Source: Enteropsectra breve
Lineage: Eukaryota > Microsporidia
Length of the DNA stretch: 37,827 nucleotides
NCBI GenBank assembly: GCA_024243835.1
Contig: JALPMN010000626.1
Coordinates: 6,923 to 44,749 of the forward strand
Reading direction: 5' to 3'
Part shown: piece after piece, positions 1,011-37,827 of the stretch
Position numbering within the stretch: position 1 is the stretch's first letter
Layout: every line of letters starts with the position of its first letter
Notes under the pieces: generated by a model
The model's input: the letters and a program-made list of their open reading frames with translations, nothing else
Database searches by the model: none
Told to the model about the DNA's origin: nothing
Made by a program: the position numbers and the translations under genes

Positions 1011-2465
1011 TTATACATTGAAGAGATTTATAGGCAGCTTTACTGCTTGATTCTCATTTTCTCTACGATAAACCACATCAAGATCTTTTATAAAATCCTT
1101 GTACAGCATCCACATCAGCACATTAAGCCGATTGTTCCTGATCTTCGAATCAACATATGATTCAAGGGTGAACAGCCTGGGCATGCAGCGGACATAGACC
1201 TTTGCAAGCTCCATTGTATAATTTTCAATAAAATATTCTTCAATTACGTAGCATTTTTCCATCCTAAATCTTATAATAGAGGATCTTAGGAAATAGCTTA
1301 TGGCCTTAAGCTCATCACTGTTCAATACCGGCCAATTGGCATTCACCCACCGCATTATTATCAACACACATTCCAGCTTCAGCATTATCCTGTTTCTTGC
1401 GGCTATTTTAACAAGGTTCAAAGTATCGCTTATTCTGAACGGCCTTGGGTTTGAAAAGAATACAGCCAATACCTCGTTCCACTCGTTGATATCCAGGTTG
1501 CACTGGATATACCTCAGAATCTTCGGAACAAAGTAGCCCCTGGAATCTGCTTTCAAATACTCAATAATTTTTTCCATATTTTTGTGCCTGTTGCAGTGGT
1601 TGAAAACGCTATCCATCATTTTTTCGAGAATATCATCTTTCTTCTCAGCCAGAGATAAATTGAGATAGCGATACTTCTCGTAATAAATATTTTCCAGAAC
1701 CTGCAGGGTATTTGGATTTGCAAGGAAATAATAAAGGTAGTAGCTGGATAGCACCGGCCTGAGGTACATGCTGTTCATAGCGCGGATGTACTGCTCATAT
1801 ATTTTCAGAAACTGCATCGGGCTGTTGTAGCACTTAAGGTCTGCGGCCATTTTCTGGATAAAATAGATTCTCTTTCCGTAGTCCTGCAGCTTTTCGTTAT
1901 TTGTGCCATTGATATACGCCTCATCACAGAATATTTTTGCATAGCCATCAAATTTTGCACTGTCATTTAGCTCATGTGTCTGAAAGTACTTGTGAACTGC
2001 AGCCCAGTTGTTGTTTCTGCTAAAATCAGGAATCATGTGGCTGTCTATCAGTATTTCCATGAGTATTTCGTGGTTCATTTCCTCTTCTTTATCATTGTAA
2101 ATTTTATAAAGATAAATTAGAGACTTAAAATCAAGGTTGTACTGGACATAAAGATAAAAGAGCTGCCCGAACATCTTCCTTACGATGTGCTTCTCAAAGC
2201 TCATGCTGCAGTGCGCATTCGGACAGGGCCAGTACGTGCTGTGGCTCGACTTTATGAAGCAGAGGATGTGGGATGTGCACCTGCATTTGGGACAGCGGAA
2301 AAACACATCATTTGTCTCAAAGTTCGGGCCTAACGCCGGCTCGAAAAACCTGCACATCGCATCGAAGCAGACGCCGGCCTGTTCCTCCCTCAGTTCTGAG
2401 ACATGCACGATCGTATCTTCACAAAAAGCTAATGCAAAGGATATCAGTGCTGCTAGGTTGATCAT
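1011..2465 (-). CDS. Secreted C4HC3 zinc-finger/helical family protein, 484 aa
   Basis: ATG at 2463-2465, preceded by CCCCT (CCCC at 2467-2470). The N-terminus (MINLAALISFALAFC) looks like a signal peptide with cleavage around residue 15-18. Candidate zinc ligands are C33, C38, C58, C61, H66, C69, C81 and C86; the first pair is C-x4-C, whereas most paralogues have C-x2-C. The rest is helical, with the family motif NPxTLxVLENIY in the middle and YVRCMP near the end. Closest to the gene at 16312, which shares the CCCT-ATG context and the C-x4-C pair. Both lack the C-terminal helix (consensus HxELxxLRxxY) found in several other members. Function unknown; an exported protein-binding role is an inference. 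Confidence 0.85.
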   Translation of the reverse strand: MINLAALISFALAFCEDTIVHVSELREEQAGVCFDAMCRFFEPALGPNFETNDVFFRCPKCRCTSHILCFIKSSHSTYWPCPNAHCSMSFEKHIVRKMFGQLFYLYVQYNLDFKSLIYLYKIYNDKEEEMNHEILMEILIDSHMIPDFSRNNNWAAVHKYFQTHELNDSAKFDGYAKIFCDEAYINGTNNEKLQDYGKRIYFIQKMAADLKCYNSPMQFLKIYEQYIRAMNSMYLRPVLSSYYLYYFLANPNTLQVLENIYYEKYRYLNLSLAEKKDDILEKMMDSVFNHCNRHKNMEKIIEYLKADSRGYFVPKILRYIQCNLDINEWNEVLAVFFSNPRPFRISDTLNLVKIAARNRIMLKLECVLIIMRWVNANWPVLNSDELKAISYFLRSSIIRFRMEKCYVIEEYFIENYTMELAKVYVRCMPRLFTLESYVDSKIRNNRLNVLMWMLYKDFIKDLDVVYRRENENQAVKLPINLFNV

Positions 2466-2470
2466 AGGGG

Positions 2471-3037
2471 TAATTTCTATTAATCTGATAAAAGTTTGAT
2501 GATCTGGCGCAATAAACTAGATAAAGAAAATTTTTAGCAAAAATATTCCCATGCAAAAAGCAAATCCTTATAATTTCATCTGAGGAATACATCTTACAAT
2601 AATGGAGCTTATTCTATAAATGCTTGTTAGCAAATATTTGCACATTTAGATTGAATATGGGGAGCATTATAAAAAAATTAAAAAAACTTAGTTTACTCAA
2701 ATCGTCTCACAGTAAACTTTTAGGGATTCACCCTTAGCATACGCAGCGCGCTTTACTTTCCGCCGCCTCTTTATTAATGTGTGTTGGCTGTCATCACTGG
2801 GGGGGGGGGAGCATTATATGTTTCTAGTATCTTGTTTTTGATGGACGGAAACTGCCCTTAATAAGCTTTAAAAAATCTTTAAATTTGTTAAATTTTATTT
2901 AATGAGTGCTTTTTCCTTATATTATTCTTCTTCTTGATTTCTCCCTAAGATAAACTCATACGTATCACACTATGGCTAATATATGCCTACGTAAGCTTTA
3001 AAAAATCTTTAACTTTTTATTTTAAAAATATTAAAAT
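2471..3037. other. Intergenic spacer, 567 bp, with GC-rich patch and G11 run
   Basis: No gene seen. It contains a locally GC-rich patch around 2735-2770, an uninterrupted run of eleven G at 2799-2809, and a 21-bp direct repeat (TAAGCTTTAAAAAATCTTTAA) at 2862-2882 and 2992-3012. Confidence 0.6.
2862..3012. repeat. 21-bp direct repeat pair, 130 bp apart
   Basis: TAAGCTTTAAAAAATCTTTAA occurs identically at 2862-2882 and 2992-3012, just downstream of the 3' end of the minus-strand gene at 3038. Significance unknown. Confidence 0.7.
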
Positions 3038-4633
3038 TTATTGAATATTCATTGCTTCTTTAAAAAACTCATCTCTTAAAGCATTAAGCTCAGCATGATT
3101 TTGTTGTGCGATCTCAGCATAATTCTCATTACATTCCTGGAGTAAAAATGCTTCCCTTTTAATTTTAAAGTCATTCATCATTGGATTCTTGATATAATAC
3201 CCCCCTGGCATGCATCTGGCATAGACCTTTCCAAGATCCGTAGTGTAATACTTCACAAAGATATCTCTAACCCCCTTTTGCAGGTCTTGTGTGAGAAGTG
3301 GCATGTATTCTTGAAAATATAAAGAAATACACGAGATTTCTGCGGCAGCTAATGGAGCTTCGAGTGAACTGACCTTGCAAAGCATTTTATCGATATAACT
3401 AAGGTCTTTGAAGATTTTAAGTCTGAATGCAGCCTTAAACACCTCTATGGCTTTTTTGATAGACATGCCCTGAAAGTCCTTTTCTTCTTTGAATAAACCC
3501 AGCTGGTGCAACACAATTTTTTCTGCTTTTTTGGTCATCCCATTATGTTCGAAATAGTTTATGAAAATGGGAATGAATACTCCGTTATTTGCATTCTGTA
3601 GATACGTATTTACCCTTATTTCGATCGCAAAGATATTGTTTTTTCCTAGTTCAGCCAGTACATTGCGCAAAAAGTCCGAATTCGATGTATTTTTTCCCAC
3701 ATTATCCAAATAATACGACGTTAAAGGCTCTTCAATTACAAGATCCATACAGCTATGATATATTTTAAGGTAGATATTCTCCATGCACTTAAATGGATTT
3801 TCGCGCCTCATGATGTTATCCATAAAATGGCTAGCAAGAGCCTCCTGTACCGCTGGATCATTCTCATTAACTACATAATACTGGTACACATCCAAAAGAT
3901 TGGCCGTGCTGGTGTGGTCTATTTTAGAAAGCAGGTTGCACATTATATGAACAGAGCGCAGTATTCTCGCTGTAACAATCAGCTCAATTTCTGTTTCTGG
4001 CCAGCTGTGAGGCGTATAGTGCAAGATTGATTCATATTCATCATCATGCGCTTTGACAATCCTGTAGTACCATCTAAAATAATAGTCTTTGATTCCAGCT
4101 ATTTTTTCGAAATACATCGCGAGTAAGTCCCATAGCTTCAGCTGACCAAAATCCTTCAGTGAATGGCTATTTATTAATATATTCATGATCTCCGTATGAT
4201 TTATTTGCCTCTTGTCATTTATAAAGCGCGCGTAGAATTTTTTAAATTTCTTAAAAGGCATTTTATTGGTTATAATGGAATAGAGCAAGTGTGCAAACAG
4301 TCTATTTATATCATTGCTCTTTAAAACCACGTTGCATGTGTGGTTTGAGCATTTAAGCCGTCTGTTTACCGATGACTCCATCAAGCATGTGAGGTGTACT
4401 ACTGTTTTGCATTTTGGACAGCAAAAGAAACTGGAACTGTTGTTTTGGAAATAGGAGTCCCCCTTTAAAAAGTATTTGTGGGGTACCTTCTTTGTGACTA
4501 AATTCAAACAGCATATGCATGCAAGGCCCTTTTATATACGGTTATTCAATTCTTGATCTTTAATAAGCATTGTTTCAACCGCTGCATTTATATGCGATAT
4601 TAAGATCACAAAAAGTGTTGTAAACCATATCAT
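3038..4633 (-). pseudogene. Family member interrupted by an in-frame TAA at codon 34
   Basis: A CCC-ATG start at 4631-4633 opens a signal-peptide frame (MIWFTTLFVILISHINAA) closely matching the next gene. Codon 34 (4532-4534) is TAA. The same frame then continues uninterrupted for about 497 codons to 3038, including the first Cys pair, CPKC-x4-H-x2-C, C-x4-C and the YARCMP signature. No frameshift is needed, only one nonsense substitution. After the stop there is no in-frame ATG before the zinc module, so internal initiation would lose that module; a TTG at 4507 is the only near-cognate start. Upstream sequence (GCAAAATTTACCC) is conserved with the gene at 5448. Options are a young pseudogene, stop readthrough, or a sequencing error. 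Confidence 0.8.
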
Positions 4634-4636
4634 GGG

Positions 4637-5447: not shown

Positions 5448-7040
5448 TTATTGGATAGCCATTACTTCTTTAAAAAACTCATCTCTTAAAGCATTAAGCT
5501 CAGCATGATTTTGTTGTGCGATCTCTGCATAACCCTCATTACATTCCTGGTGTAAATATTCTTCCCTTTTAACCTTAAAGTCATTCATCTTTGAATTCTG
5601 AAGATAATACTCCCCTGGCATGCATCTGACATAGATCTTTCCAAGGTTCTTTGTATAATTCTTGACAAAGAAATATCTAACTATCTCTTGCTGATATTCA
5701 ATGAGATGCTGCATGCGCTCTTGGAGATATGAAGAAATACTTGATACTTCCCCAGCTGTCAGCGGTACTGTAAGTAAACTAAGCTTGCACAACATCTTCT
5801 CTATGTGCTCCAGTTCTAAGAAAATGCCAAGCCTGGGTGCGGTTTTCAGCAAATATATCGTGTTTTTGATAGACATGCCCTGAAAGTCCGTATTTTTATT
5901 GAATAAATCCAGCTGGAGCAAGGCAATTTCTCTTGCTTTGCCAGGCATCCCATTGTGTTCAAAATAGTTAATGAAGGTGGGAATGAAAACCCCTTTATTT
6001 GTATTTTTTAAATAAGCGTTAATCCTTTTCTCTACTGCGTAGATATTGTTTTTTCCGAGTTCAGCCAGAACATTATTCACAAAATCGGATTTGAGGAAGC
6101 GATTTTCCAGGTTAACCAAATAATACGGTGTTAATAGTTCTTCAATTATCAGATCCTTACGACCATGATATAATTTAACGTAGATGTCCTCCATACACTT
6201 AAATGGATTTTCGCGCCTCATGATATTGTCGGTAAAATAGCCGGCAAGAACCCACTGTATCATACGATCGCTCTCATTAGCAACAAAAAATTCATAAACG
6301 TTTAAAAGATTAGCAGCACCGTCTATATTAGATAGCTGGTTGTGCATTGAGTTGATAGCGCGCAGTTTTCTAGCTGTATTAATCAGTTCGATTTCAGTTT
6401 CTGGGTGCTTTTGAGGGGGAAGTGATAAAATAGACTCATATTCATATTCATCGCCTGCCTTAATAATGTCGTAGTACCATTTGAAGTAGTTAGCCTTGTT
6501 TTCTGATATTTGATTAAAATATAATCGGAGCATCTCCCATAGCTTTAACTGGCCAAAATCACTCAGTGAATGGCTGTTTATTAAAATATTCATGATTTCC
6601 ATGTGGCTAACTTTCCTGTTTTCACTTATAAAGCGCGCGTAGTGGTTTTTATACTTTCTAAAATGAATATTTTTAGTCACTGTCGCATAGAGCAGATGTG
6701 CAAACAGTTTGTTTATGTCATTCTTCTTTAACACCAGGTTGCATGTGAGGTTTGGGCATTTTAGCTGTCTCTTTACGGAAGTGTTCAGAAAGCATGTTAG
6801 GTGTGCTATTGAGGTGCATGCTGGGCAGCAAAAAAAGGTAGAACTGTAATTTTGGAAATGGGAATCTCCTTTAGAAAAGGAATTTTGGCGCTCATTTTCT
6901 CTCAGTGCCCGCAGGCAGCATACGCAGGCAAGATCATTTGCTATTCTCCCCTTAAATTCATGATTTTTAATAAGCATTGTATCACCTGACGCGTTTATTT
7001 GTAAAATTGAGATCACAAAAAGTGATGCAAGCCAAATCAT
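5448..7040 (-). CDS. Secreted C4HC3 zinc-finger/helical family protein, 530 aa
   Basis: The start is the ATG at 7038-7040, directly after CCC; a longer frame from a TTG at 7055 is rejected because it would run through the conserved CCC/AAATTT signal. Signal peptide at residues 1-18 (MIWLASLFVISILQINAS), then the family motif ETMLI/DTMLI. Zinc-ligand candidates: C39, C42, C72, C75, H80, C83, C95 and C100. KKNDINKLFAHLLY follows the zinc module; a GVFIPTFINYFEHNGM motif lies in the middle; YVRCMP and a C-terminal helix (HAELNALRDEFFKE) close the protein. It is an intact sister of the interrupted gene at 3038-4633. No transmembrane segment other than the signal peptide, so the product is probably secreted. 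Confidence 0.88.
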   Translation of the reverse strand: MIWLASLFVISILQINASGDTMLIKNHEFKGRIANDLACVCCLRALRENERQNSFSKGDSHFQNYSSTFFCCPACTSIAHLTCFLNTSVKRQLKCPNLTCNLVLKKNDINKLFAHLLYATVTKNIHFRKYKNHYARFISENRKVSHMEIMNILINSHSLSDFGQLKLWEMLRLYFNQISENKANYFKWYYDIIKAGDEYEYESILSLPPQKHPETEIELINTARKLRAINSMHNQLSNIDGAANLLNVYEFFVANESDRMIQWVLAGYFTDNIMRRENPFKCMEDIYVKLYHGRKDLIIEELLTPYYLVNLENRFLKSDFVNNVLAELGKNNIYAVEKRINAYLKNTNKGVFIPTFINYFEHNGMPGKAREIALLQLDLFNKNTDFQGMSIKNTIYLLKTAPRLGIFLELEHIEKMLCKLSLLTVPLTAGEVSSISSYLQERMQHLIEYQQEIVRYFFVKNYTKNLGKIYVRCMPGEYYLQNSKMNDFKVKREEYLHQECNEGYAEIAQQNHAELNALRDEFFKEVMAIQ

Positions 7041-8131: not shown

Positions 8132-9952
8132 TTAATTCTTAACTTGATTAGTAATACCTTTTGGCTTATTTGCTCCATGGTTTGATTTTCTTATTGCCAA
8201 ACGATTTATATGTTCAATTTTGGCTGCGGCATCATAGTCGTAGATTCCTCGGTATTTTAAGTGCTCTGAACGCATATCTTTAAACTCAAGAAGTGCATCA
8301 TCGGTATAGAACGCTTTAGGCATGCATTCCATATAGAATTGTTCGAGATCTGGTGTATAGTACCTGACAAACATTTTTTGAATATCGATAATACTCTCCT
8401 TATTTTCAGGTGCGTTCATGTGAGCTTTAAGCAGTGAGGAAATACATGCTACATCTTCAGAGGCCAGCTTTGATTGCCATACAGTCATCCAGTTTAGTAT
8501 TTCATCAATATGCTCAATAGTTGTTGGAAACCTTATTCTTTCAGCCTCAGCCAGTACATAGCTTGCATTCTTTAGTGAGATATCTTGATCCCTATTATTT
8601 ATACTCAGCTCTTGGCGCTGTGACTCAATAATTTGGCTTGACTTCTTTTCGCCTACAGGCGGAAAGAGGCCGAACGCGAAGCTTGCCTTTTCTAGTGAGA
8701 TGTCATATTTCCTATTGCTTGTACTAAGCTTTTGAAGCTGAATACCAATTATCTTTTTTACGATATCTGTCCTGCCTTTGGCTGTGAAAAAACTCATTAA
8801 AGCAGGAATGAAGACATCCTTGTTGTCCAGCCTGCAATATGTGCATGCCATTTGCACCAATCTAAACATGTTATTGTTTTCGAACTCTATTAGCAGATAA
8901 AACAGAAAGTCTTGCGCATTTTCATTTATGTTCTTAGTCGTCGAAATTAAGTTTGATGGGTTTTCTATTATAGATCTCAATGTCTCATCCTTCAAAGGGC
9001 CTGCTATCACCAGTACATTGGATTTGAACTTATTAATGTATATTTCTTCAAGACACAATAAAGGATTGTGCAACGCCATTACAGAATGTATAAAATGGGC
9101 AGCAAGTGTTTTTTTAATTCGGCTTGATGCTTCTTTTTCAATATTTTCGTTATAGAAAGACAGTAGCTTTTCAGAAGTCATTTCCTCTTTAAACATTTTT
9201 CTCATATTGTTGATACGGTATAACACTGTTGCTTCATCAAATAATCCTTGTTTATCAACACCATGGCCAGCGATAAAATTCTTTATAGATTCTGCATGCC
9301 CCTCATCAAGAACTTTGAGGTAAACTTTAAATTTGCCGCTATAATTAATATAGTTCCAGTTAAAATAACTAATAAGGGATAACCAAAGTTTTGGTTGATC
9401 AATATCCAAAAGCGTTTTGCTTTCAATCAAAATATTCATAAGAATTTTTTGAGTATATACGGTTTCCTTTTTTAAATACCGATTGTAGAATCTTTGATAT
9501 ACCTCAAAATTTTGATTTCTGTGAACAAAGACATAGAACAGCTGGGCAAACAACCTGTTGAGATCATTGCTTTTAAATACCAGCTTACATCTTGGATTTG
9601 CGCATGCATACACACTATTTTCCGAGTGATCGAACAAACAATTAATATGTCCAATAGAGTCACATTGAGGACAGTGAAAATAGTTAATGCTATAGTTGCC
9701 GAAACTTATATTCACATCATCCTCTTCGACTAAAGTCCTGTCCTCCACATATTCTGACTTGACAATTCTGCTTTTGCAGAAGTGACATTTGGTGAAGCTT
9801 TTAGTTTTCTCATTTAGATCTGGAATACGCATAAGCATCATTTTATCGTTAGCCGTGTACTGATTAAATGGTGCTTTTCTTATGCACTTTTTTTCACTTC
9901 CTGCAGAAATATTTGATACTAGAATACTAACAAGTGATATCAGTCCAATCAT
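8132..9952 (-). CDS. Secreted C4HC3 zinc-finger/helical family protein, 606 aa
   Basis: Start at the ATG 9950-9952 directly behind CCC; a TTG two codons upstream (9958) overlaps the signal and is rejected. Signal peptide at residues 1-18 (MIGLISLVSILVSNISAG). Zinc-ligand candidates are C56, C59, C94, C97, H102, C105, C117 and C122, with a longer first loop than other subfamilies. KSNDLNRLFAQLFYVF follows. The C-terminal signature is YMECMP instead of the usual YxRCMP. It is the longest member because of an internal tandem duplication of 40 codons (about 8560-8620 against 8680-8740 on the plus strand, roughly residues 385-465), shared with the pseudogene at 11605 but not with the gene at 13947. 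Function unknown. Confidence 0.88.
   Translation of the reverse strand: MIGLISLVSILVSNISAGSEKKCIRKAPFNQYTANDKMMLMRIPDLNEKTKSFTKCHFCKSRIVKSEYVEDRTLVEEDDVNISFGNYSINYFHCPQCDSIGHINCLFDHSENSVYACANPRCKLVFKSNDLNRLFAQLFYVFVHRNQNFEVYQRFYNRYLKKETVYTQKILMNILIESKTLLDIDQPKLWLSLISYFNWNYINYSGKFKVYLKVLDEGHAESIKNFIAGHGVDKQGLFDEATVLYRINNMRKMFKEEMTSEKLLSFYNENIEKEASSRIKKTLAAHFIHSVMALHNPLLCLEEIYINKFKSNVLVIAGPLKDETLRSIIENPSNLISTTKNINENAQDFLFYLLIEFENNNMFRLVQMACTYCRLDNKDVFIPALMSFFTAKGRTDIVKKIIGIQLQKLSTSNRKYDISLEKASFAFGLFPPVGEKKSSQIIESQRQELSINNRDQDISLKNASYVLAEAERIRFPTTIEHIDEILNWMTVWQSKLASEDVACISSLLKAHMNAPENKESIIDIQKMFVRYYTPDLEQFYMECMPKAFYTDDALLEFKDMRSEHLKYRGIYDYDAAAKIEHINRLAIRKSNHGANKPKGITNQVKN
8555..8745 (-). repeat. 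Internal 120-bp coding tandem duplication
   Basis: The coding stretch around 8560-8620 matches that around 8680-8740 at an exact 120-bp offset. In protein terms QLQKLSTSNRKYDISLEKAS is repeated as QRQELSINNRDQDISLKNAS. The pseudogene at 11605-13424 has the same duplication (about 12027 and 12147); the paralogue at 13947 has a single copy. Confidence 0.85.
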
Positions 9953-11604: not shown

Positions 11605-13424
11605 TTTTTAACTTGATTAGTAATGCCGTTTGGCTCATTTGCTTCTAAGATTGATTCTCTAATATCCAAACGATCTATGTGTTCATTTATTGCTACATAA
11701 TCATACTAATCTGCCCCTCGGTATTTTAGTGCTCTAAACGCATATCTTTAAACTCTAGAAGTGCATCATCGGAATAATACTCTTTGGGCATGCATTCCAT
11801 ATAGATTTGTTCGAGCTCTGGGGTATAGTACCTGACAAACATTTTTTGAATATCGATAATACTCCCCTTATTTTCAGGTGCGTCCATGTGAGCTTTAACC
11901 AGTGAGGAAACACATGCTACATCTTGAGAGGTCAGCTTTGATTTCCATTCAGCCACCCAGTTTAAAATTTCATCAATATGCTCAATAGTTGTTGGAAACC
12001 TTATTCTTTCAGCTTCAGCCAGTACATAGCTTGCATTCTTTAGTGAGATATCTTGATCCTTATTGTTTATATTAAGCTCTTGGCGTTGCGGCACAATAAT
12101 TTGGCTTGAGTTCTTTTCGCCAGTAGGCGGAAAGAGGCCGAACGCAAAACGTGCCTTTTCTAGCGAGACATCAAAATTCCTATTGCTTGTACTAAGCTTT
12201 TGAAGCTGAATACCAATTATTTTTTTACGATATCTGTCCTGCCGTTGGCCGAGAAAAAACTCATTAAAGCAGGAATGAAGACACCCTTGTTGTCCAGCCT
12301 GCAATATGTGCATGCCATTTGCACCAATCTAAACATGTTATTGTTTTCGAATTCCTCAAGCAGACAAAGCAATAGGTTTCTTGCTTCGCGTATTATATTC
12401 TTTTCATCTTTAGGGGCATCGGATAACAGGTTTGCTATCATGTCGCTAAAAGTCATAGAGGTCAATGGGGCTTCAATTAACAGCTCATTGCATTTGGACT
12501 TACAAATGTATATTTCTTCCAGACACAACAAAGGATTGTGAAACGCCATGACAGAATGTATAAGATGAGCAGTAATTTTTTTTCTCAATGAATCGAATAT
12601 GCCTTTATCCACACATTTATTATACAGTTTGAACAGGTCGTTTAATGCCATAATATTCTTAAAACGCTCATTCATTTTGCTGATGCGGTTCAACACCGCT
12701 GCAGTATCAAATAATTTACCTTTTTCTTTATCACTCATCTTATCATTTCTCCAAATAAAATTTGAACTTCGTGTATCAAGAGCCTTAGCGTAAATGGCAA
12801 AATATTTTTTATCATTTCTATTGTTCTTTTCAAAGTAAACTTGTACATCCGTCCATAGAATTTTCTGATCAATATCTTGAAGCGTTTTGCTTTCGATTAA
12901 AATATTCATGAGCATTGCATGGGTAAAGCGCTTCCCTTTTTTTTTAAGTATAAGTTGTATGTTCTTTTAAAATCCTTGAAGTTAGCATCTCTGTACAAAA
13001 AGACATAGAACAGCTGGGCGAATAGTCTGTAGAGATCGTTACTTTTAAAAACCAACTTGCATTGTGGATTTGGGCATTCATAAATTTGATGTTCTGATTT
13101 CTCGAACAAACAATTCAAGTGCCCAATGCAATCGCATTGAGGACAGCGAAAATACTTAATGCTAACATTACCATAGTTTACGTTCATTCCATGATTTTTT
13201 TCTGATGTACAGATCTCTGCTTCCTCTTTATTTATGATTTGACCGGTACAAAAGTGGCACTTCGCATTATTTTCAATTTTTTCATTTAAACAAGGAATAG
13301 GAACAAGGATCATTTTATCGGCAGCTGTGTACGTATTAAATGGGGATCTTTGTATAGATATTCCATCACTATTTGCTGAGATATTTAATATCCAAAAATT
13401 GATAAAAGTTACCGGTATCTTCAT
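11605..13424 (-). pseudogene. Family pseudogene with three frameshifts
   Basis: A near-complete paralogue of the genes at 8132 and 13947. It has a CCC-ATG start at 13422-13424, a signal peptide, and the full set of C-x2-C, CPQC-x4-H-x2-C and C-x4-C ligands. Compared with its sisters it has lost single bases at three places: in the T9 run at 12937-12945 (frame breaks before MLMNIL), in the T7 run at 12220-12226 (after the motif TDIVKK), and at about 11724-11728 (after DMRLEH, giving TAA). A further in-frame stop follows near 11706. The last ~120 bp (11605-11725) are recognisable as the lost C-terminal coding region. The rest is well conserved, so inactivation is recent, or the homopolymer gaps are sequencing errors; the extra stop argues for a real pseudogene. 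Confidence 0.85.
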
Positions 13425-17646: not shown

Positions 17647-17843
17647 AGGGCACAGAATAAGAAAAATTGATAAAAAAATTCGTTTATACCAAAATTTTTT
17701 AGATAAAGCGTTTTCAGAAAAATACGTTGAAATACTAAGACATAAAGAAGGCAAATAACAAACCCGCTTATTTTTTTGATGATGCGTGATATGTATTTAT
17801 AAACAGTCAAAATATACTTATTTGAGCTTGAATACTTTAATAA

Positions 17844-19394: not shown

Positions 19395-19397
19395 CAA

Positions 19398-20020: not shown

Positions 20021-20131
20021 ACCAGAAATAAATTTTTAACTAATACAACTGGACAAAAAAAAGTTGGACAAAAAGTATAAACAAGGAATATTTCGATATT
20101 TATAAATATTATTAGAAAAAATGTTTATCCC

Positions 20132-21225: not shown

Positions 21226-21368
21226 AAAGAATTCCAGTAGCAAGATATTTGATATACTAATGAGACACACCACATTACACACAAATGCGTTTTATTCTCT
21301 TCCAATACTTGCTTTATATCAGCAAAAAAATTTTTTTTAAGTGTTTAACTTATTTTTCGGGGCTAATG
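21216..21368 (-). repeat. Right terminal inverted repeat
   Basis: Complement of the left repeat; the outer end is GGGGCTAATG followed by the TA at 21369-21370. The inner limit is approximate. Confidence 0.7.
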
Positions 21369-21370
21369 TA

Positions 21371-21431
21371 GAAACATGTCTTCACTTATTCCTCCAACAA
21401 CTTTGATTAAGTATAGAAGAAGTCTAATCAT
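21371..21431 (-). pseudogene. 5' fragment of a copy of the gene at 16312
   Basis: CCCT-ATG at 21429-21431 followed by about 20 codons closely matching the start of the 16312-17646 gene (residues VVGGISEDMF recur). The coding sequence then stops exactly at the TA flanking the mobile element. The upstream region to about 21560 also matches. The remainder of the gene is absent on the other side of the element. Confidence 0.85.
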
Positions 21432-21666
21432 AGGGCATAGAATAAAAAAATTTGATAAAAAAATTCGTTTGTACCAAAATTTTTTAGATTCAGCGCTATT
21501 CAGGAAAATAGTTAGAAGTGATAAGACATAAAAAGAGCAAAAAATAAATCCGCTTATTTCTTTTGATGTTGAGTGTTATGTTTTCTAAAATAGTTAAAAT
21601 GTACTTATTTGAGCCTGAATACTTTAATAATCAATTTTGTAAATTAAATTCCTGTATAGTATTCTG

Positions 21667-23181: not shown

Positions 23182-23666
23182 CAAGGGTAAAATTTGTCGT
23201 TAGTTTTATAATTAAAAAGGGGTAAAAAAGTGTTGTCCGATGCAATTTTACAAGAAAAGCAGTGTTTTATACCAATTAAAATGATGCTACTCCTATTTAG
23301 AAAAATAACGATGCAACTCCTTTTATAGCTTTAAATACACAAATCAGAAAAATGTTTACAAAACAGCACTGATCTGAGAATTGGAAAATTTTATTTGTGA
23401 TCTTGAACATCATAATTGTAAATCTTTTGGATAAAATGCACATTTTAAGAAGAACTCACTTTATAAATATTTTTAAATCAAGATTGTGTCTACGAAGATC
23501 AGGCATTAAAATTGCCTATGATTTTTAGAACACTTCAATTAAAATACGAGGCATTCAGCATAAATATGTCATTTAGTGGCTTTTAATAAACAAATAACGT
23601 ATATCATGATTAGACAGAGAAAAATGATTTCGTGTAATAAAATAAAATAAACTTGAATTTATATAA

Positions 23667-25898: not shown

Positions 25899-27596
25899 TC
25901 AGATATTGGTCTGACTTTGTTCGCTTTCGTATGCATTTCTTAATTCTAGTAGTTTATGATGCTCTTTCATAGCAACTGATTCACTGTATTCAGTCTTCTT
26001 CTCCTTTAAGTACTTATTTCGTTTCAGCGCAAAGTCTGCCATTCTAATTCCCTTATTATCATAGTAGCGCTGGGGCATACACCTCGAATAGATTTTTCCC
26101 ATATCCGCTGTATAGTTTTTAACGAACATATCCTGTATGCTGTCTTGATGCTCGTGGCTAAAGCCTGCAATAACATGCTCAAAAAAGAATGTAATGCAAT
26201 GAATCTCTTCGTCTGTCAGTGTTGATGCAATTGAGTGAATCCAGAATATTATTGTGTCAATTTCCCAGATACTAATTTTGACGCCAAGTTGGGGTGCTGC
26301 ACAAAGCACATAAATAGCGTTTTTTATTGACATGCTGGGCAAGCCGTTTTTGCCAGAAAATGATTTTACCTGAAGCCTTGCTATTTCTCTTGCTTTATCG
26401 AGCATTCCATTGTTTTCAAAATAGTTAATGAAAGTGGGAACAAATACTCCTTTATTTTCATTTTGTAAATAGTTGCTAATTTTACTTTCTATCGTATAGG
26501 AATTATTTTTCTCGAACTCAACCAGCATGTTGCTCAACAAGTCACGTAACACTATGTTCTCAATATCATCAGTCAAGGACACAGTTGCCAGGTGATTTTC
26601 AGGCAGTTCGCCACTTGCTTCCGGGTCATTTTTAGGGCACCACAAAAGATCAGATGCTAGCGGTACATTTATCCGCAGATCAGCAGTGTTATTCACAGCG
26701 ATGTAAATATCTTCCATGTATTTAAATGGGTTGGTGCTCCTCATAACGAAGTACATAAAAAGGCTAGCAAGATGCTGCTTTGTGTAAGGTGACGATGCTT
26801 TATACACATATTCCTCATATGCAGAGAAGACACCAGAAGGAGAACTGTCTTTGCAAAGCAGATCCCACAGGTTTTGAGATTCATGGAGCAAAAATGGCAG
26901 CTCACTCAGCTGAGCGCAGTGCGCACTCAGTTTGCTTTGCTCTAAATGTATGGGAAATGCCCGGTCTAAATTCCCAGTTGCCATTTTTAGCTTTCTAAGA
27001 GGCACACATTCGTAAAAACAATGTCTCTGATAGTTTTTCATTACCTCCCGTAGCCTTGCAGAGCCAAATTCTGGAACAGTAGAACTTCTAATCAAAATAT
27101 TTAAATAGTTGTTCTGTAGCTGAAGCTTGGGACAGGGGAAGAATTCCTTGCAGTATAATTCAAATGCACCCAAAGTCATATATTTGCAGAGATGCGTATA
27201 GAGCAGCTGGGCAAATAGCCTGTTTATATCATTCACTTTAAACAGCAGCGAGCATTCGGTATTTGGGCATCGCAGCGCTATTTTTGAGATTCCGCGTGGG
27301 TTCTTTGGGGATTTTGTAGAATTTCTTTGGAATGGTTTCAGGAAACAGCTGATATGGGCTATATTATCGCATTTGGGGCAACAAAAATAATTATGGCTGT
27401 AATTTTGATATTCATTTTCTAAAGATCGAGAATAGTTTAAAGTATCCATGTCATGCTCGATGATTTCAAGACAGGCACAGCAAGCAAGGCCATTTCCAAT
27501 TCTCATCTCTAATTCTGAGGTTTCTACAAGCATCGTTTCAGTACAAGCTGAAAGGCGCGATATTAAAATCATCATCCCTGATACAAGCCGAACCAT
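25899..27596 (-). CDS. Secreted C4HC3 zinc-finger/helical family protein, 565 aa
   Basis: ATG at 27594-27596 directly after ACCC. Signal peptide at residues 1-18 (MVRLVSGMMILISRLSAC). Ligand candidates C39, C42, C73, C76, H81, C84, C110 and C115; the loop before the last pair carries a basic insertion (about residues 89-105, KSPKNPRG) of the sort also seen at 31124. KVNDINRLFAQLLYTH follows the module, then NPFKYMEDIY, GVFVPTFINYFENNGM, YSRCMP and a C-terminal helix (HHKLLELRNAYESE). Only 170 bp separate the start from the end of ELP1. Confidence 0.88.
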   Translation of the reverse strand: MVRLVSGMMILISRLSACTETMLVETSELEMRIGNGLACCACLEIIEHDMDTLNYSRSLENEYQNYSHNYFCCPKCDNIAHISCFLKPFQRNSTKSPKNPRGISKIALRCPNTECSLLFKVNDINRLFAQLLYTHLCKYMTLGAFELYCKEFFPCPKLQLQNNYLNILIRSSTVPEFGSARLREVMKNYQRHCFYECVPLRKLKMATGNLDRAFPIHLEQSKLSAHCAQLSELPFLLHESQNLWDLLCKDSSPSGVFSAYEEYVYKASSPYTKQHLASLFMYFVMRSTNPFKYMEDIYIAVNNTADLRINVPLASDLLWCPKNDPEASGELPENHLATVSLTDDIENIVLRDLLSNMLVEFEKNNSYTIESKISNYLQNENKGVFVPTFINYFENNGMLDKAREIARLQVKSFSGKNGLPSMSIKNAIYVLCAAPQLGVKISIWEIDTIIFWIHSIASTLTDEEIHCITFFFEHVIAGFSHEHQDSIQDMFVKNYTADMGKIYSRCMPQRYYDNKGIRMADFALKRNKYLKEKKTEYSESVAMKEHHKLLELRNAYESEQSQTNI

Positions 27597-31123: not shown

Positions 31124-32263
31124 TTACTCTGCATTTTCATCTGCTTTGTCTTCCTTCCCATCTGTTGCACTATAGTTGTTGAAAACAGGGATAAAGGCCC
31201 CTTGATTTTCATTTTTCAAATAAATATCGATTTTTGAAGTGATTGTAAAATTATTATTCTTTTGCAACTCATTCAGCATGCAGCTTAACAAGCCACAAAC
31301 CACCGGGTGTTCATCGCTATAATTTGAGAGTTCAGATTTTAGTGGTATGTTCTTCGGTAAATTAGCATTTCTAATTGCAGCGTAGTATATTTCTTCCATG
31401 AATTTGAAAGAGTTTTCTTTCCTCATAACAAAATACATAAAGAGATTTGATAGCTGCTCTTTTAGATACAATGAGCTTGCTTTGCAGACATAAGCCTCGA
31501 ATGTGGAGTAAACTTCAGATGGAGAGCTGCACTCACAGAGCCGATCCCACATATTTTGACTTTTATAGAGCAAAAATGCTTGTTCATTTAATCTTGAAAT
31601 ATATTCTTGCTTTTCACTGTGAGGCAAAAATCGCGGAAATGCCTTATCTAGCATTTTAAAGGCATAGGACAGCTTTGATTGGGCTGCATTTTTATGAAGT
31701 GATGCATCATAAGCTATGAGAAGATCTCTTAGCATCTTTGTGCCAAATTCTGGGATAGTTGAGCTTTCAATCAAAAAATCTAAATAAATATATGGAGGCA
31801 TGCTGTTCTTAACGGGGAAATAACTTTTAAAGTATTGCTCAATATTATCTGCATACTCGCGCTTGCTAACACATGTGTAGATCAACTGAGCGAACAGTCT
31901 GATTAAATCATTGCTTTTAAACAATAGCAAGCACTCAGGATTCGGGCATTTTAAGTCTTTTGGGGTTTCTTTTTTCTCTTGGTATGCTGGTTCATTTCGG
32001 CCGCTTTTCAGGAAGCAGTCGATATGGGCCACCTGCTCGCATTTAGGACAGCAAAAATAACTGGGACTGTAATTTGTGTATTCATTTTCTGCTTCGGGCG
32101 CGCTGAATAGACAATTCGCACTATAGCTGATTGATTTCTCACACATGTCGCAACGCTTCTCATTTTTAATCCTGTCTTCTAATACTGAGATTTTTGCTAG
32201 CATCATATCACTAGTAGCTGTAAGATGCGAGAGTAAAACAATCACTCCTGATATAATCCTCAT
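31124..32263 (-). CDS. Truncated family protein, 379 aa
   Basis: ATG at 32261-32263; the context is CCC-ATA-ATG, probably from CCC-ATG-ATG. Signal peptide at residues 1-17 (MRIISGVIVLLSHLTAT), and a complete ligand set C38, C41, C72, C75, H80, C83, C106 and C111, with a lysine/glutamate-rich insertion before the last pair. KSNDLIRLFAQLIYTC follows. The frame ends early, soon after GAFIPVFNNY, so the last ~170 residues including YxRCMP are missing; their decayed remains lie at 30691-31123. It could still make a secreted zinc-finger protein lacking the C-terminal domain, or be a pseudogene whose 5' part has not yet decayed. Confidence 0.75.
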   Translation of the reverse strand: MRIISGVIVLLSHLTATSDMMLAKISVLEDRIKNEKRCDMCEKSISYSANCLFSAPEAENEYTNYSPSYFCCPKCEQVAHIDCFLKSGRNEPAYQEKKETPKDLKCPNPECLLLFKSNDLIRLFAQLIYTCVSKREYADNIEQYFKSYFPVKNSMPPYIYLDFLIESSTIPEFGTKMLRDLLIAYDASLHKNAAQSKLSYAFKMLDKAFPRFLPHSEKQEYISRLNEQAFLLYKSQNMWDRLCECSSPSEVYSTFEAYVCKASSLYLKEQLSNLFMYFVMRKENSFKFMEEIYYAAIRNANLPKNIPLKSELSNYSDEHPVVCGLLSCMLNELQKNNNFTITSKIDIYLKNENQGAFIPVFNNYSATDGKEDKADENAE

Positions 32264-32568: not shown

Positions 32569-34245
32569 TTATTCCATTGACCAATAATCAATATTTTGCC
32601 CACTGTAGTTTGAGTTTCGCAAATTTTCGAGTTCATATTCTTTTCTCAGCTTCTTAAGCAATTTTAGTGCACTTCCCTCTTTGTAAAACGAATCCAAGCT
32701 TTTTGTAAAGCTGGCTAAGTTTTCTTCATTACAAAGTCTATAGCACATGCATCGTACGTAGATTGCAGCGGTATCCCGTGAATAATACTTAACAAAGAGG
32801 CTTTGCAGCTCTCTGTGCTGTTCAAGCGTGAGATTGGCAGTGAAATCCTGCAAATAATCAGAAATATATCTTATATTTTCATTACTTAACGCCCTTGGAG
32901 ATGAATGTATCCACTTCAGTATTTGCTCAATATATTCATTGCTCAGTGCCTTGTTAAACCTCCTTGCAGCTCTTAATACATACATGGTATTATTGACTGA
33001 CATTTCTTGGAAAGGTTTATTGCTGGCTTCTTCTTTTAGCTGCTCCTTAATAATATCTTCAGCCTGATCGCGCATGCCGTTATTCTCGAAAAAATTAATC
33101 AGAATTGGCACGAACACCCCCTGATTGTCCGATCTTAGATATGTTTCTGCAATTTCTTTTATCATAACTAAATTGTTTTTACCGAGTTCACAAAGGACAC
33201 TTCTCAGAAGCTTTATAGGTAATACTTTTTTGGCTATCTTTTCTAAAGACTCTGGCAAAAATGGGCTTTCTGACAAATTGTGCAAAAATTCAGATGAAAG
33301 CTGCTTTTCTACTACCAGATCCTTGGTTTGACACATCTCTACAAACATCTCTTCCAGATGCTTCACTGGATTCTCTAAGGTCAATATGAAATATACAAAA
33401 TGAGCGCCCAAAGAGTTCTGTATGGCAGGCTCAGCTGCATTTTTTTCTAGCCAGCATTCATATACTTCTAAAAGATCCTTGGCTGTTAACGTCTTATCAT
33501 TCTTCTTCTGCATTTCATCTATAAAGAGGAGCAGTGTCCCAACTTCAAACAATGCTTTCCTTTCTTGTAAAGGCCTGTTAAGGAAGTTCCTGACAAATGA
33601 CGCATCTTGTGTTTCTAGGATGTGGTTGTATACTTTAAAAAGATATCTTTTATCCATATAGTTCATATCGAAATATTTCTTTAAAATTCTCCATAGACTT
33701 GCCTGGTCCATATAAGCCAGTGTTTTGCTTTCTGTTAGAATTTTTATTATCACCGAGTGGCTCACTTTTCTGTCGTCTGGAGAATAATAGCTGTACAACT
33801 TTCTAAAGACCCCAAAATTAATCTTTCTAGTGGCTAATACATATATAAGCTGTGCAAACAACTTATTTTTTTCGTTGCTTTTCAGTATCAGCTCACAATT
33901 AGGATTACTGCATTTTAAATTCTTATTTTCGGACGATTTTAGAAAGCATTCAATATGTGCTATGGAATCGCATTTAGGGCAACTAAAATAGTTGATGCTG
34001 TAATTATAATAGGTATTTTCGAACTGTGGCTCTTTGGAAAATGGCGCTGTGGCCTTGATCTGTTTCATGCAGCACATGCACTTGATTCCTTCCCTAATTT
34101 TCTTATTTAAGACACAGGTCTCCATAAGCATGTCAGAGTAGCATGACGCGCTTACAGCAATTGTGGAGCGTCTTATAAGCGATATATCATCAGTAGTAGC
34201 ACCATATGATAAAACTAGTATTAAAAACCTTGCAAATCCCAACAT
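32569..34245 (-). CDS. Secreted C4HC3 zinc-finger/helical family protein, 558 aa
   Basis: The ATG at 34243-34245 is preceded by TCC, the weakest version of the start signal here; a TTG at 34263 is rejected because the signal peptide (MLGFARFLILVLSYGAT) begins properly at the ATG. A Ser/Arg-containing extension of about 20 residues separates the leader from METCVLNKKI. Ligands C56, C59, C89, C92, H97, C100, C112 and C117. KSNEKNKLFAQLIYVL follows. Central GVFVPILINFFENNGM and MSVNNTMYVLRAARRF. The signature reads YVRCMC rather than RCMP, as in the partial gene at 37110. The C-terminus is charged (LKKLRKEYELENLR). Confidence 0.87.
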   Translation of the reverse strand: MLGFARFLILVLSYGATTDDISLIRRSTIAVSASCYSDMLMETCVLNKKIREGIKCMCCMKQIKATAPFSKEPQFENTYYNYSINYFSCPKCDSIAHIECFLKSSENKNLKCSNPNCELILKSNEKNKLFAQLIYVLATRKINFGVFRKLYSYYSPDDRKVSHSVIIKILTESKTLAYMDQASLWRILKKYFDMNYMDKRYLFKVYNHILETQDASFVRNFLNRPLQERKALFEVGTLLLFIDEMQKKNDKTLTAKDLLEVYECWLEKNAAEPAIQNSLGAHFVYFILTLENPVKHLEEMFVEMCQTKDLVVEKQLSSEFLHNLSESPFLPESLEKIAKKVLPIKLLRSVLCELGKNNLVMIKEIAETYLRSDNQGVFVPILINFFENNGMRDQAEDIIKEQLKEEASNKPFQEMSVNNTMYVLRAARRFNKALSNEYIEQILKWIHSSPRALSNENIRYISDYLQDFTANLTLEQHRELQSLFVKYYSRDTAAIYVRCMCYRLCNEENLASFTKSLDSFYKEGSALKLLKKLRKEYELENLRNSNYSGQNIDYWSME

Positions 34246-34248
34246 GGA

Positions 34249-34709: not shown

Positions 34710-36206
34710 TTAATTACTGAGTTTTGGATTTACTTTGGCCATAAAGTCTTCCATTTTATTTTTGAACGAAAAAACACGCGGCATTATTTTCGTGTATATT
34801 TCCATAATTTCTGGCGTGTAGAAATCGATGAAAATCTGTTGTATTGGAATGCATTGCTCGCAGGTGAAATTTTCAGTATACCTTTTTAGAACAGAAGCGA
34901 TAAAAGACTTGTCTTCATCGCTCAGTTCAATAATGTGGAAGGACATCCACTTAACAATTCGTCTAATGGATTCAAGATCAAGCGTATAATTATAATTTTG
35001 TGCTTCTTTTAATATGTAAATGGTATTAGGTACGGACATTCCATTGAAGCACTTATTTTTATCTAGGGAGGCTAACTGATGCGTTATAATGTCAAGCACA
35101 ACGTTATGCATATTGTTTTGATTGAAGAAAGTCAATAAACTCGGCATAAAAATTCCTTGATTCGAATGCTTGTAATAGACTTCTGCCGTTGACATTATTT
35201 TTATAAAATTGCTGTTTGCGAATATAGAAAACATACTTTGTATGAATTCAGCTGATTTTGGATTTCCAGTATGCGTTTTATCAGAGCGATACATTTCAAT
35301 GCATATAGCCTCCATAAACCTAAAAGGATTGGATTGTAGCATCATGAAGCACATAAAATGGTCTTTAAGAATGTCCCTTATAGGGTGTGACTTTTCATTA
35401 ACTATGAGGTTATTATAAACTTCGGACAGATCGGCCATTGAACTGCCTTTCTCAATCTGTTCCTTCATTTTATCAATGGCGCATAGCTTTGTTGCTATTA
35501 CAGCAATTTCATTTTTAACATGATCCGATACAGTATTGAACTGCTTTTGAAACTCATTTTCTTGTTTGTTTATTTTTAGCTTATACAACTTAAATCCAAC
35601 CTTGGAATCTACTTGTATGTTTTTACTAAAATACCGCATAGAATTCTTCCACAGTGCTCTTTGGTCACTTAGAAGAAGTGTTTGGCTCCCAATCAAAATA
35701 TCAAGTAAGATAGTATGGGACAGTTTTGTGCCTTGCATCTCGGGATTCGAGCGAGGATTTTGGGCTGAATCCAATGCCTGGCTATTTTTCCTCGTATAAA
35801 GGGAATAAAACTGTTTATAAGCATAAAAATCAAGATTGTGACTCATAAATACATACAAAAGCTGAGCAAAAAGCTTATTGATATCAGTTTTTGTAAGATT
35901 TAAAGCACAGTTATAATTTGGGCATTTCAATTGCTCGTCAATCGCAGAGCCAAAAAAGCATTGAATATGTGCTATCGAGCGACAGTTTGGGCAGCAAAAA
36001 TAGTTAGCGCTATATTTTTCGTAGAAAATATCCTCATTCTTGTGCTGCACTGATGATTCTTTCTTAAGGATATGTTTCGAGCAGGCATTGCATCTAAGCC
36101 TACTGTCTATTCGCTGATTTAGTTCAGCATGTTCTATGAGCATCATTTCATTTGCTGCATTGATTTGTGATATCAATATCATTACAAAACTAAGGAATTT
36201 CATCAT
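34710..36206 (-). CDS. Secreted C4HC3 zinc-finger/helical family protein, 498 aa
   Basis: The ATG at 36204-36206, immediately behind CCC, is the start; the frame is open 34 codons further upstream, but that part has no counterpart in paralogues and would bury the signal peptide (MMKFLSFVMILISQINAA). Ligands C39, C42, C72, C75, H80, C83, C95 and C100 sit at the same residues as in 5448. KTDINKLFAQLLYVF follows. A polar insertion (around residues 140-160, SAQNPRSNPEMQ) interrupts the first helical block. The C-terminal signature has decayed to YTKIMP, without the cysteine, and the terminal helix is replaced by a short basic end. The only representative of its subfamily in the window. Confidence 0.86.
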   Translation of the reverse strand: MMKFLSFVMILISQINAANEMMLIEHAELNQRIDSRLRCNACSKHILKKESSVQHKNEDIFYEKYSANYFCCPNCRSIAHIQCFFGSAIDEQLKCPNYNCALNLTKTDINKLFAQLLYVFMSHNLDFYAYKQFYSLYTRKNSQALDSAQNPRSNPEMQGTKLSHTILLDILIGSQTLLLSDQRALWKNSMRYFSKNIQVDSKVGFKLYKLKINKQENEFQKQFNTVSDHVKNEIAVIATKLCAIDKMKEQIEKGSSMADLSEVYNNLIVNEKSHPIRDILKDHFMCFMMLQSNPFRFMEAICIEMYRSDKTHTGNPKSAEFIQSMFSIFANSNFIKIMSTAEVYYKHSNQGIFMPSLLTFFNQNNMHNVVLDIITHQLASLDKNKCFNGMSVPNTIYILKEAQNYNYTLDLESIRRIVKWMSFHIIELSDEDKSFIASVLKRYTENFTCEQCIPIQQIFIDFYTPEIMEIYTKIMPRVFSFKNKMEDFMAKVNPKLSN

Positions 36207-36222
36207 GGGTAAAATTTGATTT
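36207..36222 (-). promoter_or_regulatory. CCC/AAATTT start signal
   Basis: Minus-strand CAAATTTTACCC abuts ATG-ATG and decides the start over an upstream in-frame alternative at 36308. Confidence 0.55.
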
Positions 36223-37109
36223 TTATTTTGATTGCAAAAAGAGATTACCAGACTTAGCGGTAGTGCTCTTGGTGTTGTGTTTGAGATATAAACAGCCAAT
36301 ATTATCAAAAAGATGCAGCCCGAAATATTGGGGCTTCCGCTTCACAAGTATGTTTAATTTAAGAGAATAAGAATTTTGAAAAATGAGATCAATCAAATAT
36401 AATAATGGTTTTTTTCACAATTGAATTTATAGCAAGGAGGTGGTTTATATTAGCACCAAAAAATAGTAAAATATAATGAAGATTTTAACATATCCTGTTG
36501 GCTCCAAAGATTTTGTGAAGGCAAGCACCTGTATAATACGCCTTCTCCTATTTGATATTAAGAACGTTTTAGCTACCAGTTTCTTCTTTTTTTGAGGCAT
36601 TTTTAATAAGAGGTGATCCCAAAAGAGGTTCATATGGATTAAATATGCCCATTAGCAAACTTCATAGCTAGACAACAATTTCCAATTTTATTGAGCAAAT
36701 AATTTTTGTTATATTCTAACTACTTATCATTTGAGTTTTGTCAAGGTTAATAGCCGTCAGAACACAACTTCAAATTCGTTGCTCTTAATTCGTCAACAAA
36801 AATGTTACAACGATGTTACTTGTATTTGAATCTAAGAAATATTTCAAAAATAACATTAAAATGGAGGTCTCTACCGATAGTGTAAATAAAGCTGATCGGA
36901 ATGCCCTAGGCCTTTATTTTCTTCTTATACTTTTTTCTGATAAATAGCCAAAAACAATTTTTACAAAATAATAACCTCTTTAAAAGAAAATGCCTAAACT
37001 AAAAAACTTATTAGAAGCACATGATCACAGATATATATGCTTATCGTTTGTAAAATATTTTAATGTAAGTTGCCACATTTAAATATTTACTGTGCCTAAC
37101 GATACCACC
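36223..37109. other. Intergenic spacer, about 0.89 kb
   Basis: No supported gene. A 62-codon minus-strand ATG frame at 36445-36633 contains lysine- and arginine-rich clusters and a hydrophobic end, but has no CCC context. Confidence 0.45.
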
Positions 37110-37827
37110 TTATTCTTCATCCCACCAATCAGTAATTGGCTGTTTTTCATTTTCGTGCTTTATTTTTAGCTCTATTTTTAGCTCTTCAAGCTCCTCAAGT
37201 GGGTCTTTTTTCAACTCCTTCTGATACTCTTTCGCTTTTTCTGCAAAGGCTATAAAGTTTTTATATGTGTAGAAGAGAGTGCACATGCATCTTACATAAA
37301 TAATAGCGGTATCATGTGAGTAAAACCTGGCAAAGATATCTTGTAAATCGTTATACTGTTCTTGTTGAAGATTGGCGATGCAGCTCTGCAAATAGGAGGA
37401 AATATATATCAAATTTTCGATGCCCAAAGATTTTGGCAATAAATAAATCCAATTTAGTATTTGTTCAACATATTCACGATTCAATGGCTTGCCCAACCGC
37501 CTTGCCGCTTTTATCACATACATAGTATTTTTGACTGACATTTCTTTAAAAGGTACCTTAAACTCTACTTTAACCCCTTTTATAACCTCTACTTCAATGA
37601 TTGCTTTTAGCTGTTCTACAATAATTTTTCTTGCCAGGCTCTCCATCTGATTATTCACGAAAAAGTTTATTAGAATAGGCATTAACACACCCTTGTTCTC
37701 AGACATTATGTAGTTTTCTGTCATAGCATTTATCATAAAAATGTTATTTTTCTTTAGTTCAGAGAGAATGCTTCTTAAAAAGTTGAGAGCCAATGGATCG
37801 TATGTCCTTTTTTTCAAAAATTCAGGC
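37110..37827 (-). CDS. Family protein, C-terminal part only (cut by window edge)
   Basis: The frame is open to the last base, so the 5' end, signal peptide and zinc module lie outside the window. The visible part has GVLMPILINFFVNNQM, then an inserted Val/Lys/Glu-rich segment (EVEVIKGVKVEF) not seen in other members, MSVKNTMYVIKAARRLGK, and the signature YVRCMC shared with the gene at 32569. The C-terminus is highly charged (KKDPLEELEELKIELKIKHE, probably coiled coil) and ends in an acidic, Trp-containing tail (TDWWDEE), comparable to the DYW-containing end of 32569. These two form one subfamily. Confidence 0.85.
   Translation of the reverse strand, partial: PEFLKKRTYDPLALNFLRSILSELKKNNIFMINAMTENYIMSENKGVLMPILINFFVNNQMESLARKIIVEQLKAIIEVEVIKGVKVEFKVPFKEMSVKNTMYVIKAARRLGKPLNREYVEQILNWIYLLPKSLGIENLIYISSYLQSCIANLQQEQYNDLQDIFARFYSHDTAIIYVRCMCTLFYTYKNFIAFAEKAKEYQKELKKDPLEELEELKIELKIKHENEKQPITDWWDEE

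What the first reader, a model, noticed from the sequence alone, without database searches (positions are those of the whole stretch)
1011..37827. Array of fifteen paralogues: secreted C4HC3 zinc module fused to a helical domain
Sequence shows fifteen minus-strand members (plus a 5' fragment) with the order signal peptide, C4HC3 ligands, KSNDxNRLFAQLxY, helical region and YxRCMP. The ligand spacing (C-x2-C / C-x2-C-x4-H-x2-C / C-x4-C) resembles RING-variant or PHD fingers but ends in C-x4-C instead of C-x2-C. Secreted multigene families are known in microsporidia as candidate host-interaction factors. That this one could act as host-targeted ubiquitin-ligase-like or protein-binding effectors is inference. 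I cannot match it to a named family.
Basis: partly seen in the sequence, partly recalled or inferred. Interest (0 to 1): 0.85.

Follow-up and report, generated by a model that had tools for sequence, protein, structure and literature searches.

The report
Secreted RING-like parasite protein gene array
A microsporidian parasite carries a tandem array of fast-changing, probably secreted proteins, each with a RING-like zinc module at the front of a long helical body; some copies have dropped one of the two zinc sites, which suggests a protein-binding family facing the host rather than ordinary ubiquitin ligases.

Summary
The array is real. A six-frame profile scan finds 15 minus-strand loci, including one cut by the contig end: 11 intact genes, one with an early stop, one in three frames, one C-terminally truncated. 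The genome is microsporidian. At least nine more loci lie on four other contigs. The only named relatives found are two Enteropsectra breve proteins, ENBRE01_2640 and ENBRE01_2641.

AlphaFold gives a confident model: a cross-brace RING-like module followed by an alpha-solenoid. The module's nearest solved folds are RING/PHD domains, led by the SLX1 C4HC3 RING, but weakly. Four copies in one clade lost zinc site 1 (first C-x2-C plus H-x2-C) and kept site 2, as cross-brace pairing predicts. Two divergent relatives close with the usual C-x2-C.

Signs of E3 activity are weak: no Arg linchpin and no helix Trp. Best reading: a clade-restricted, rapidly evolving family of secreted, protein-binding solenoids with an atypical, partly decaying RING cap. 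This adds a new variant to the known microsporidian large secreted gene families. Function and host delivery are inferred.

The parts
1011..2465 (-). Family member 1, intact (484 aa); first Cys pair respaced (C-x4-C); module 2136-2429
   Evidence: ORF; profile match; ligands
3038..4633 (-). Family member 2; frame interrupted by a stop between 4528 and 4535, zinc module and helical part open downstream of it
5448..7040 (-). Family member 3, intact (530 aa), the modelled copy; zinc module plus first helix at 6669-6962
8132..9952 (-). Family member 4, intact (606 aa); module 9515-9808
11726..13424 (-). Family member 5, broken into three frames (11726-12313, 12217-12915, 12906-13424); module 12987-13280
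13947..15650 (-). Family member 6, intact (567 aa); module 15213-15506
16312..17646 (-). Family member 7, intact (444 aa); first Cys pair respaced; module 17344-17637
17844..19394 (-). Family member 8, intact (516 aa); zinc site 1 lost (all four ligands), site 2 kept; module 19026-19319
21667..23181 (-). Family member 9, intact (504 aa); zinc site 1 lost, site 2 kept; module 22813-23106
23667..25310 (-). Family member 10, intact (547 aa); module 24939-25229
25899..27596 (-). Family member 11, intact (565 aa); module 27180-27515
31124..32263 (-). Family member 12, C-terminally truncated (379 aa); module 31859-32185
32569..34245 (-). Family member 13, intact (558 aa); module 33823-34116
34710..36206 (-). 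Family member 14, intact (498 aa); module 35835-36128
37110..37826 (-). Family member 15, C-terminal part only; the gene's 5' end is beyond the contig end
17584..19842 (.). Left copy of a 2.26-kb tandem duplication holding member 8
   Evidence: repeat families D6-D8, D11, D16, D18, D19
21369..23629 (.). Right copy of the same duplication holding member 9

Best explanation
This is a clade-restricted family of secreted microsporidian proteins built as signal peptide, atypical C4HC3 cross-brace (RING-type) zinc module, and alpha-solenoid body. Most likely they leave the parasite through the secretory route and bind host proteins. The solenoid gives the variable binding surface. The zinc module acts as a folded cap and interaction surface next to the first solenoid helix, much as the SLX1 RING docks on a helical partner, rather than as a working ubiquitin ligase. 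The array grows by tandem duplication and decays by stops, frameshifts and loss of zinc site 1. Shown here: the array, family relations, tandem duplication, purifying selection, ligand pattern. Predicted: RING-type fold, alpha-solenoid. Inferred: secretion, host exposure, protein binding.
Confidence: 0.55

Rival explanations
1. Working ubiquitin (or SUMO) E3 ligases: the zinc module binds a host E2 and the solenoid brings a host substrate.
For: RING-type fold with E3 RINGs among its neighbours (RNF165, RNF38, PHF7, Deltex). Pro after C7 in 14 of 20 readable copies; residue before C2 hydrophobic or Cys in 16 of 18 readable copies. One-zinc half-RINGs can be ligases: UBR4 hemiRING plus helical UZI domain; SP-RINGs keep only the distal site (PMC10873205, passages), which I equate from memory with the site kept by the site-1-less copies. 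NemLGF2 is a secreted RING family in N. displodere (PMC4928854, passages).
Against: Linchpin position Lys in 2, His in 1 of 20 copies, never Arg; no Trp in the five residues after H-x2-C in 21 copies. Intact copies lacking site 1 are still under purifying selection over their whole length. Nearest fold, SLX1, needs its RING to bind SLX4 (PMC4726241, passages).
Confidence: 0.17
2. The proteins work inside the parasite: ER/secretory pathway, spore wall or polar tube, not host cells.
For: A signal peptide only shows entry into the secretory route (searches are hydropathy only); no localisation data exist.
Against: No KDEL-like ending and no membrane helix in 15 sequences; tandem growth, decay and fast divergence fit host-facing families: host-exposed Nematocida proteins were found enriched for targeting signals, large families and clade restriction (PMC5423893, passages).
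Confidence: 0.2
3. The Cys-rich module is a disulfide domain, not a zinc domain.
For: It would fold in the oxidising ER (general knowledge, no call).
Against: The site-1 set contains a His and three Cys, an odd Cys number, yet is lost as a set in 3 copies; His is conserved in all 11 two-site modules of A4; the predicted fold resembles cross-brace zinc domains.
Confidence: 0.06

Closest known systems
SLX1 C-terminal atypical C4HC3 RING (subgroup with FANCL)
   Same: C4HC3 ligands, RING-type fold, best structural neighbour; once taken for a PHD finger; contacts a helical partner, SLX4 (PMC4726241, passages)
   Different: SLX1 has four residues between C3 and C4; here C3-x2-C4-x4-H-x2-C and usually C7-x4-C8. 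No nuclease part seen, and secreted. Pfam SLX1_C only as a sub-threshold hit on two modules (E 0.08, 0.48)
UBR4 hemiRING-UZI and SP-RING (Siz/PIAS)
   Same: One-zinc RING relatives; UBR4 pairs a half-RING with a helical domain; SP-RINGs keep the distal site (PMC10873205, passages), taken here from memory as the same half that the site-1-less copies keep
   Different: UBR4 keeps the proximal site; here most members keep both sites; no shown E3 activity
NemLGF2 of Nematocida displodere
   Same: Large secreted microsporidian family with RING domains (PMC4928854, passages)
   Different: NemLGF2 RING is C-terminal and its model resembles leucine-rich repeats (PMC10393165, passages); here N-terminal RING-like module and alpha-solenoid. 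No NemLGF2 sequence was compared
Enteropsectra breve ENBRE01_2640 / ENBRE01_2641
   Same: True family members: same architecture; 2641 is 30% identical over 96% to member 3 and 2640 is 61% identical to 2641
   Different: Only two found there; 'hypothetical protein'
Ogr/Delta-type zinc ribbon (PF04606)
   Same: CPxC...CxNxxC of site 2; sub-threshold hits on two site-1-less copies (E 0.017, 0.047) and on member 4 (module 0.023, whole protein 0.85)
   Different: Below Pfam cut-off; full members carry a second interleaved site

Membership tests
RING/cross-brace zinc domain | Eight Cys/His ligands in four pairs, two interleaved zinc sites | tested here: met
   17 of 25 copies have all eight ligands (15 in the usual spacing, 2 C84 copies ending C-x2-C); 2 more have a respaced first pair; site-1 set lost as a unit in one clade. 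Met by most members, not by the site-1-less clade
RING/cross-brace zinc domain | RING-type beta-beta-alpha fold | tested here: inconclusive
   Model has strands 47-53 and 60-62 and helix 63-68 around the ligands; neighbours are mostly RING/PHD domains but none significant alone
RING/cross-brace zinc domain | Zinc bound with tetrahedral geometry | not testable with these tools
   Model coordinates not available; no metal data
RING-type ubiquitin E3 ligase | Basic linchpin residue after the last ligand (Arg in prototypes; varies among E3s, PMC12326332, passages) | tested here: not met
   Lys in 2, His in 1, Arg in 0 of 20 readable copies
RING-type ubiquitin E3 ligase | E2 binding and ubiquitin transfer | not testable with these tools
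   Needs purified protein
PHD finger | C3-x2-4-C4-x4-5-H-x2-C ligand spacing (recalled) | tested here: met
   C-x2-C-x4-H-x2-C in 21 of 25 copies; the 4 others are the site-1-less ones
PHD finger | Trp two residues before the last ligand pair (recalled) | tested here: not met
   Trp there in 1 of the 25 sequences printed (member 1); mostly Leu or another hydrophobic residue in the window copies
Pfam family | Match above curated cut-off | tested here: not met
   None above cut-off in 18 family members (9 window, 7 other G000, 2 E. breve; 3 of them also scanned as module alone); intact members 9 and 10 and broken copies were not scanned. Lowest E: MFS_2 0.0059 on member 8; zf-RING_16 0.0082 on ENBRE01_2641
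Microsporidian 'large gene family' (definition in PMC5423893, passages) | At least 10 homologous members in one species | tested here: met
   24 loci in this genome, several broken
Microsporidian 'large gene family' (definition in PMC5423893, passages) | Enriched in signal peptides or membrane segments | tested here: inconclusive
   Hydropathy only: 18 of 24 loci have an N-terminal 12-residue mean of 1.8 or more, one has 1.47, five were not measured or lack the N-terminus. SignalP not run
NemLGF2 | Homology to N. displodere family members | not tested
   No NemLGF2 sequence was fetched; architecture differs by the papers' description
Microsporidia (host genome of the array) | SSU_rRNA_microsporidia match over full model length | tested here: met
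   882 bits, model 1-1311; 9 of 14 control genomes also exceed this family's low cut-off of 50 bits, but this was the best-scoring SSU family of its clan

The most novel reading that the evidence does not exclude
A secreted, host-directed RING-like family in which one gene lineage has moved from a two-zinc RING to a one-zinc, SP-RING-like half-module while keeping its helical body, so that ubiquitin- or SUMO-pathway hijacking by parasite-encoded solenoid adaptors, and the stepwise conversion of a RING into a half-RING, can both be studied within one gene array.
Probability: 0.12. Interest if true: 0.75.

Novelty: new variant of a known kind. Interest (0 to 1): 0.45.

Why it matters
Microsporidia carry many large secreted gene families, almost all without a known fold or function. 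Here the fold of both parts can be predicted with fair confidence. The paralogues give a natural test of which ligands share a zinc ion and what remains when one site is lost. The family is shared by this genome and Enteropsectra breve, a nematode parasite, so it could be approached in a nematode host. It does not by itself solve how these parasites control host cells.

Tried and rejected

Considered and rejected: assembly artefact (members are 21-34% identical to member 3 and 43-65% in the close pairs measured, with differing spacers and an inserted transposon); wholesale pseudogene decay (dN/dS below 1); C-x4-C as defining (two relatives end in C-x2-C).

Contig-end placement: the loci on C71, C94, C84 and C143 lie within 0.2-3.1 kb of a contig end; 7 of 100000 random placements are as close. 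The test was made after seeing the pattern, C119 was left out, and assembly breaks at repeats would give the same result, so no subtelomeric claim is made.

Literature: searches found no description of this family in the held library (listings and abstract starts; passages of the papers cited); supplementary tables (PMC10393165 S7) could not be read.
Full report
WHAT IS THERE. The window is G000:C119:6923-44749 of a 3.96-Mb, 155-contig assembly and runs to the contig end. The assembly holds a full-length match to SSU_rRNA_microsporidia (882 bits, model 1-1311), so it is a microsporidium. A profile of 17 intact relatives, run on the six-frame translation, finds 15 loci, all on the minus strand, and none elsewhere in the window. 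Eleven are intact ORFs of 444-606 aa. Member 2 has a stop near its start, member 5 is in three frames, member 12 is truncated, and member 15 is cut by the contig end.

BEYOND THE WINDOW. Searching the same genome with two window members, one C143 member and two C84 members found five tandem copies on C143 (four intact), one on C71, one interrupted copy on C94 and two divergent copies on C84: 24 loci in all, a lower bound. The C84 copies score 75.7 and 31.0 bits against the profile (E 4.5e-25 and 1.6e-11 in a three-sequence search; both, the second above all, with high compositional bias). In the 5.8-billion-protein database the only named relatives found were ENBRE01_2641 and ENBRE01_2640 of Enteropsectra breve. 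Both lie on a contig of 8,395 bases and have consecutive locus tags, so they are probably neighbours. The searches missed rows of their own queries, so this is not proof of absence.

THE ZINC MODULE. The ligand order is C-x2-C, C-x2-C-x4-H-x2-C, C-x4-C. In 12 of 12 aligned sequences (11 window, one E. breve) the C-P-x-C and C-x-N-x2-C pairs are invariant; the C143 copies have Ser in place of that first Pro. Across 25 copies that reach the module (14 window, 5 C143, C71, C94, 2 C84, 2 E. breve), 17 have all eight ligands, counting both C84 copies, whose last pair is the ordinary C-x2-C. Members 1 and 7 have a respaced first pair, one C143 copy lacks the first Cys, and one C143 piece is cut. Members 8 and 9 and the C94 copy have lost C1, C2, H5 and C6; the C71 copy has lost three of these and kept the His. 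All four keep C3, C4, C7 and C8. On a tree made only from helical columns they form one clade (92/98) with a single change. A cross-brace fold predicts exactly this, because C1, C2, H5 and C6 share one zinc and C3, C4, C7 and C8 the other. It is one event, not a replicate.

SECRETION. All 11 intact window members begin with a hydrophobic stretch (best 12-residue mean 1.8 to 2.8). Of 12 non-family ORFs from the fetched loci and window, two exceed 2 and ten are at or below 1.02. CCC stands just before the ATG in 12 of 13 window family starts, in 6 of 9 family starts elsewhere, and before the non-family gene 27767-29731. This is the start signal described for microsporidia (PMC2803860, passages), which supports the start codons and therefore the signal peptides; it is not special to the family. 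In 15 sequences no later segment reaches the hydropathy of a membrane helix (19-residue maximum 1.08-1.38) and no C-terminus is KDEL-like. SignalP was not available.

EVOLUTION. Members 8 and 9 are a 2.26-kb tandem duplication (17584-19842 and 21369-23629) with a Tc1/mariner-like remnant in its junction. Members 2/3 and 4/5/6 are also tandem repeats. The 3' end of member 5 is 92% identical to that of member 4, while other repeat blocks between the two are 61-77% identical, a sign of recombination. dN/dS (NG86) in four close window pairs is 0.60 (8/9), 0.30 (4/6), 0.39 (10/11) and 0.27 (2/3, from the ATG below the stop of member 2), and no whole-pair bootstrap of 1000 reached 1; the YN00 estimates are higher, 0.40-0.61. 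This means fast change under overall constraint, including the pair that lost zinc site 1; the N-terminal part of that pair alone is less clear (26 of 1000 bootstraps at or above 1). The E. breve pair falls on the C119-type side of the tree, apart from the C143 clade (100/100). If the midpoint root is right, the C119 and C143 types split before the two species did; the tree has no outgroup.

FUNCTION. Host-exposed proteins of Nematocida are enriched for targeting signals, large families and clade restriction (PMC5423893, passages). This family has these traits, so host exposure is the likeliest reading, by analogy. The E3 idea is weaker: the residue after the last ligand is Lys in 2, His in 1 and Arg in 0 of 20 readable copies, and none of 21 copies has a Trp in the five residues after H-x2-C. 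The linchpin does vary among real E3s (PMC12326332, passages), and a one-zinc half-RING with a helical partner domain is a real E3 in UBR4 (PMC10873205, passages), so E3 activity is not excluded. SLX1, the best structural neighbour, is an atypical C4HC3 RING that is required to bind the helical SLX4 domain (PMC4726241, passages). I therefore favour a structural and binding role for the module.

NOVELTY. Large secreted families are well known in microsporidia (68 families in 23 genomes, PMC5423893, passages; 39 families in 13 nematode-infecting species, PMC10393165, passages), and NemLGF2 already joins secretion and RING domains. New here are the N-terminal atypical RING on an alpha-solenoid, the within-family loss of one zinc site, and the link to E. 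breve. Searches found no description of the family; supplements were not readable.

Noticed in passing
window 19916-21317: Tc1/mariner-like DNA transposon remnant (by eye): 146-nt terminal inverted repeats (77% complementary) and + strand transposase-like pieces in separate ORFs, sitting in the junction of the member 8/9 duplication.
   Followed up: partly
window 27767-29731: Non-family 654-aa gene inside the array, with sub-threshold matches to ELP1 beta-propeller domains (E 0.0026 and 0.008); CCC before its ATG.
   Followed up: no
window 11724-12023 and 8256-8555: The 3' ends of members 5 and 4 are 92% identical while other repeat blocks between them are 61-77%, suggesting gene conversion or unequal crossing-over.
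   Followed up: no
window 25513-25842: A 109-aa ORF with a hydrophobic start between members 10 and 11; no Pfam match and no CCC before its ATG.
   Followed up: no
L029 3409-6627 and 2291-3265: Beside the second array on C143: two ORFs that look like a retroelement polyprotein (reverse transcriptase and integrase motifs, judged by eye), and a pyruvate dehydrogenase E1-alpha-like ORF.
   Followed up: no
L028, L030, L031, L034: The family loci on C143, C71, C94 and C84 lie within 0.2-3.1 kb of a contig end (7 of 100000 random placements as close); subtelomeric position or assembly breaks could explain it.
   Followed up: partly
L034 1781-3463 and 3945-5588: Two very divergent family relatives with an ordinary C-x2-C closing pair, one with a long insert before it.
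   Followed up: partly
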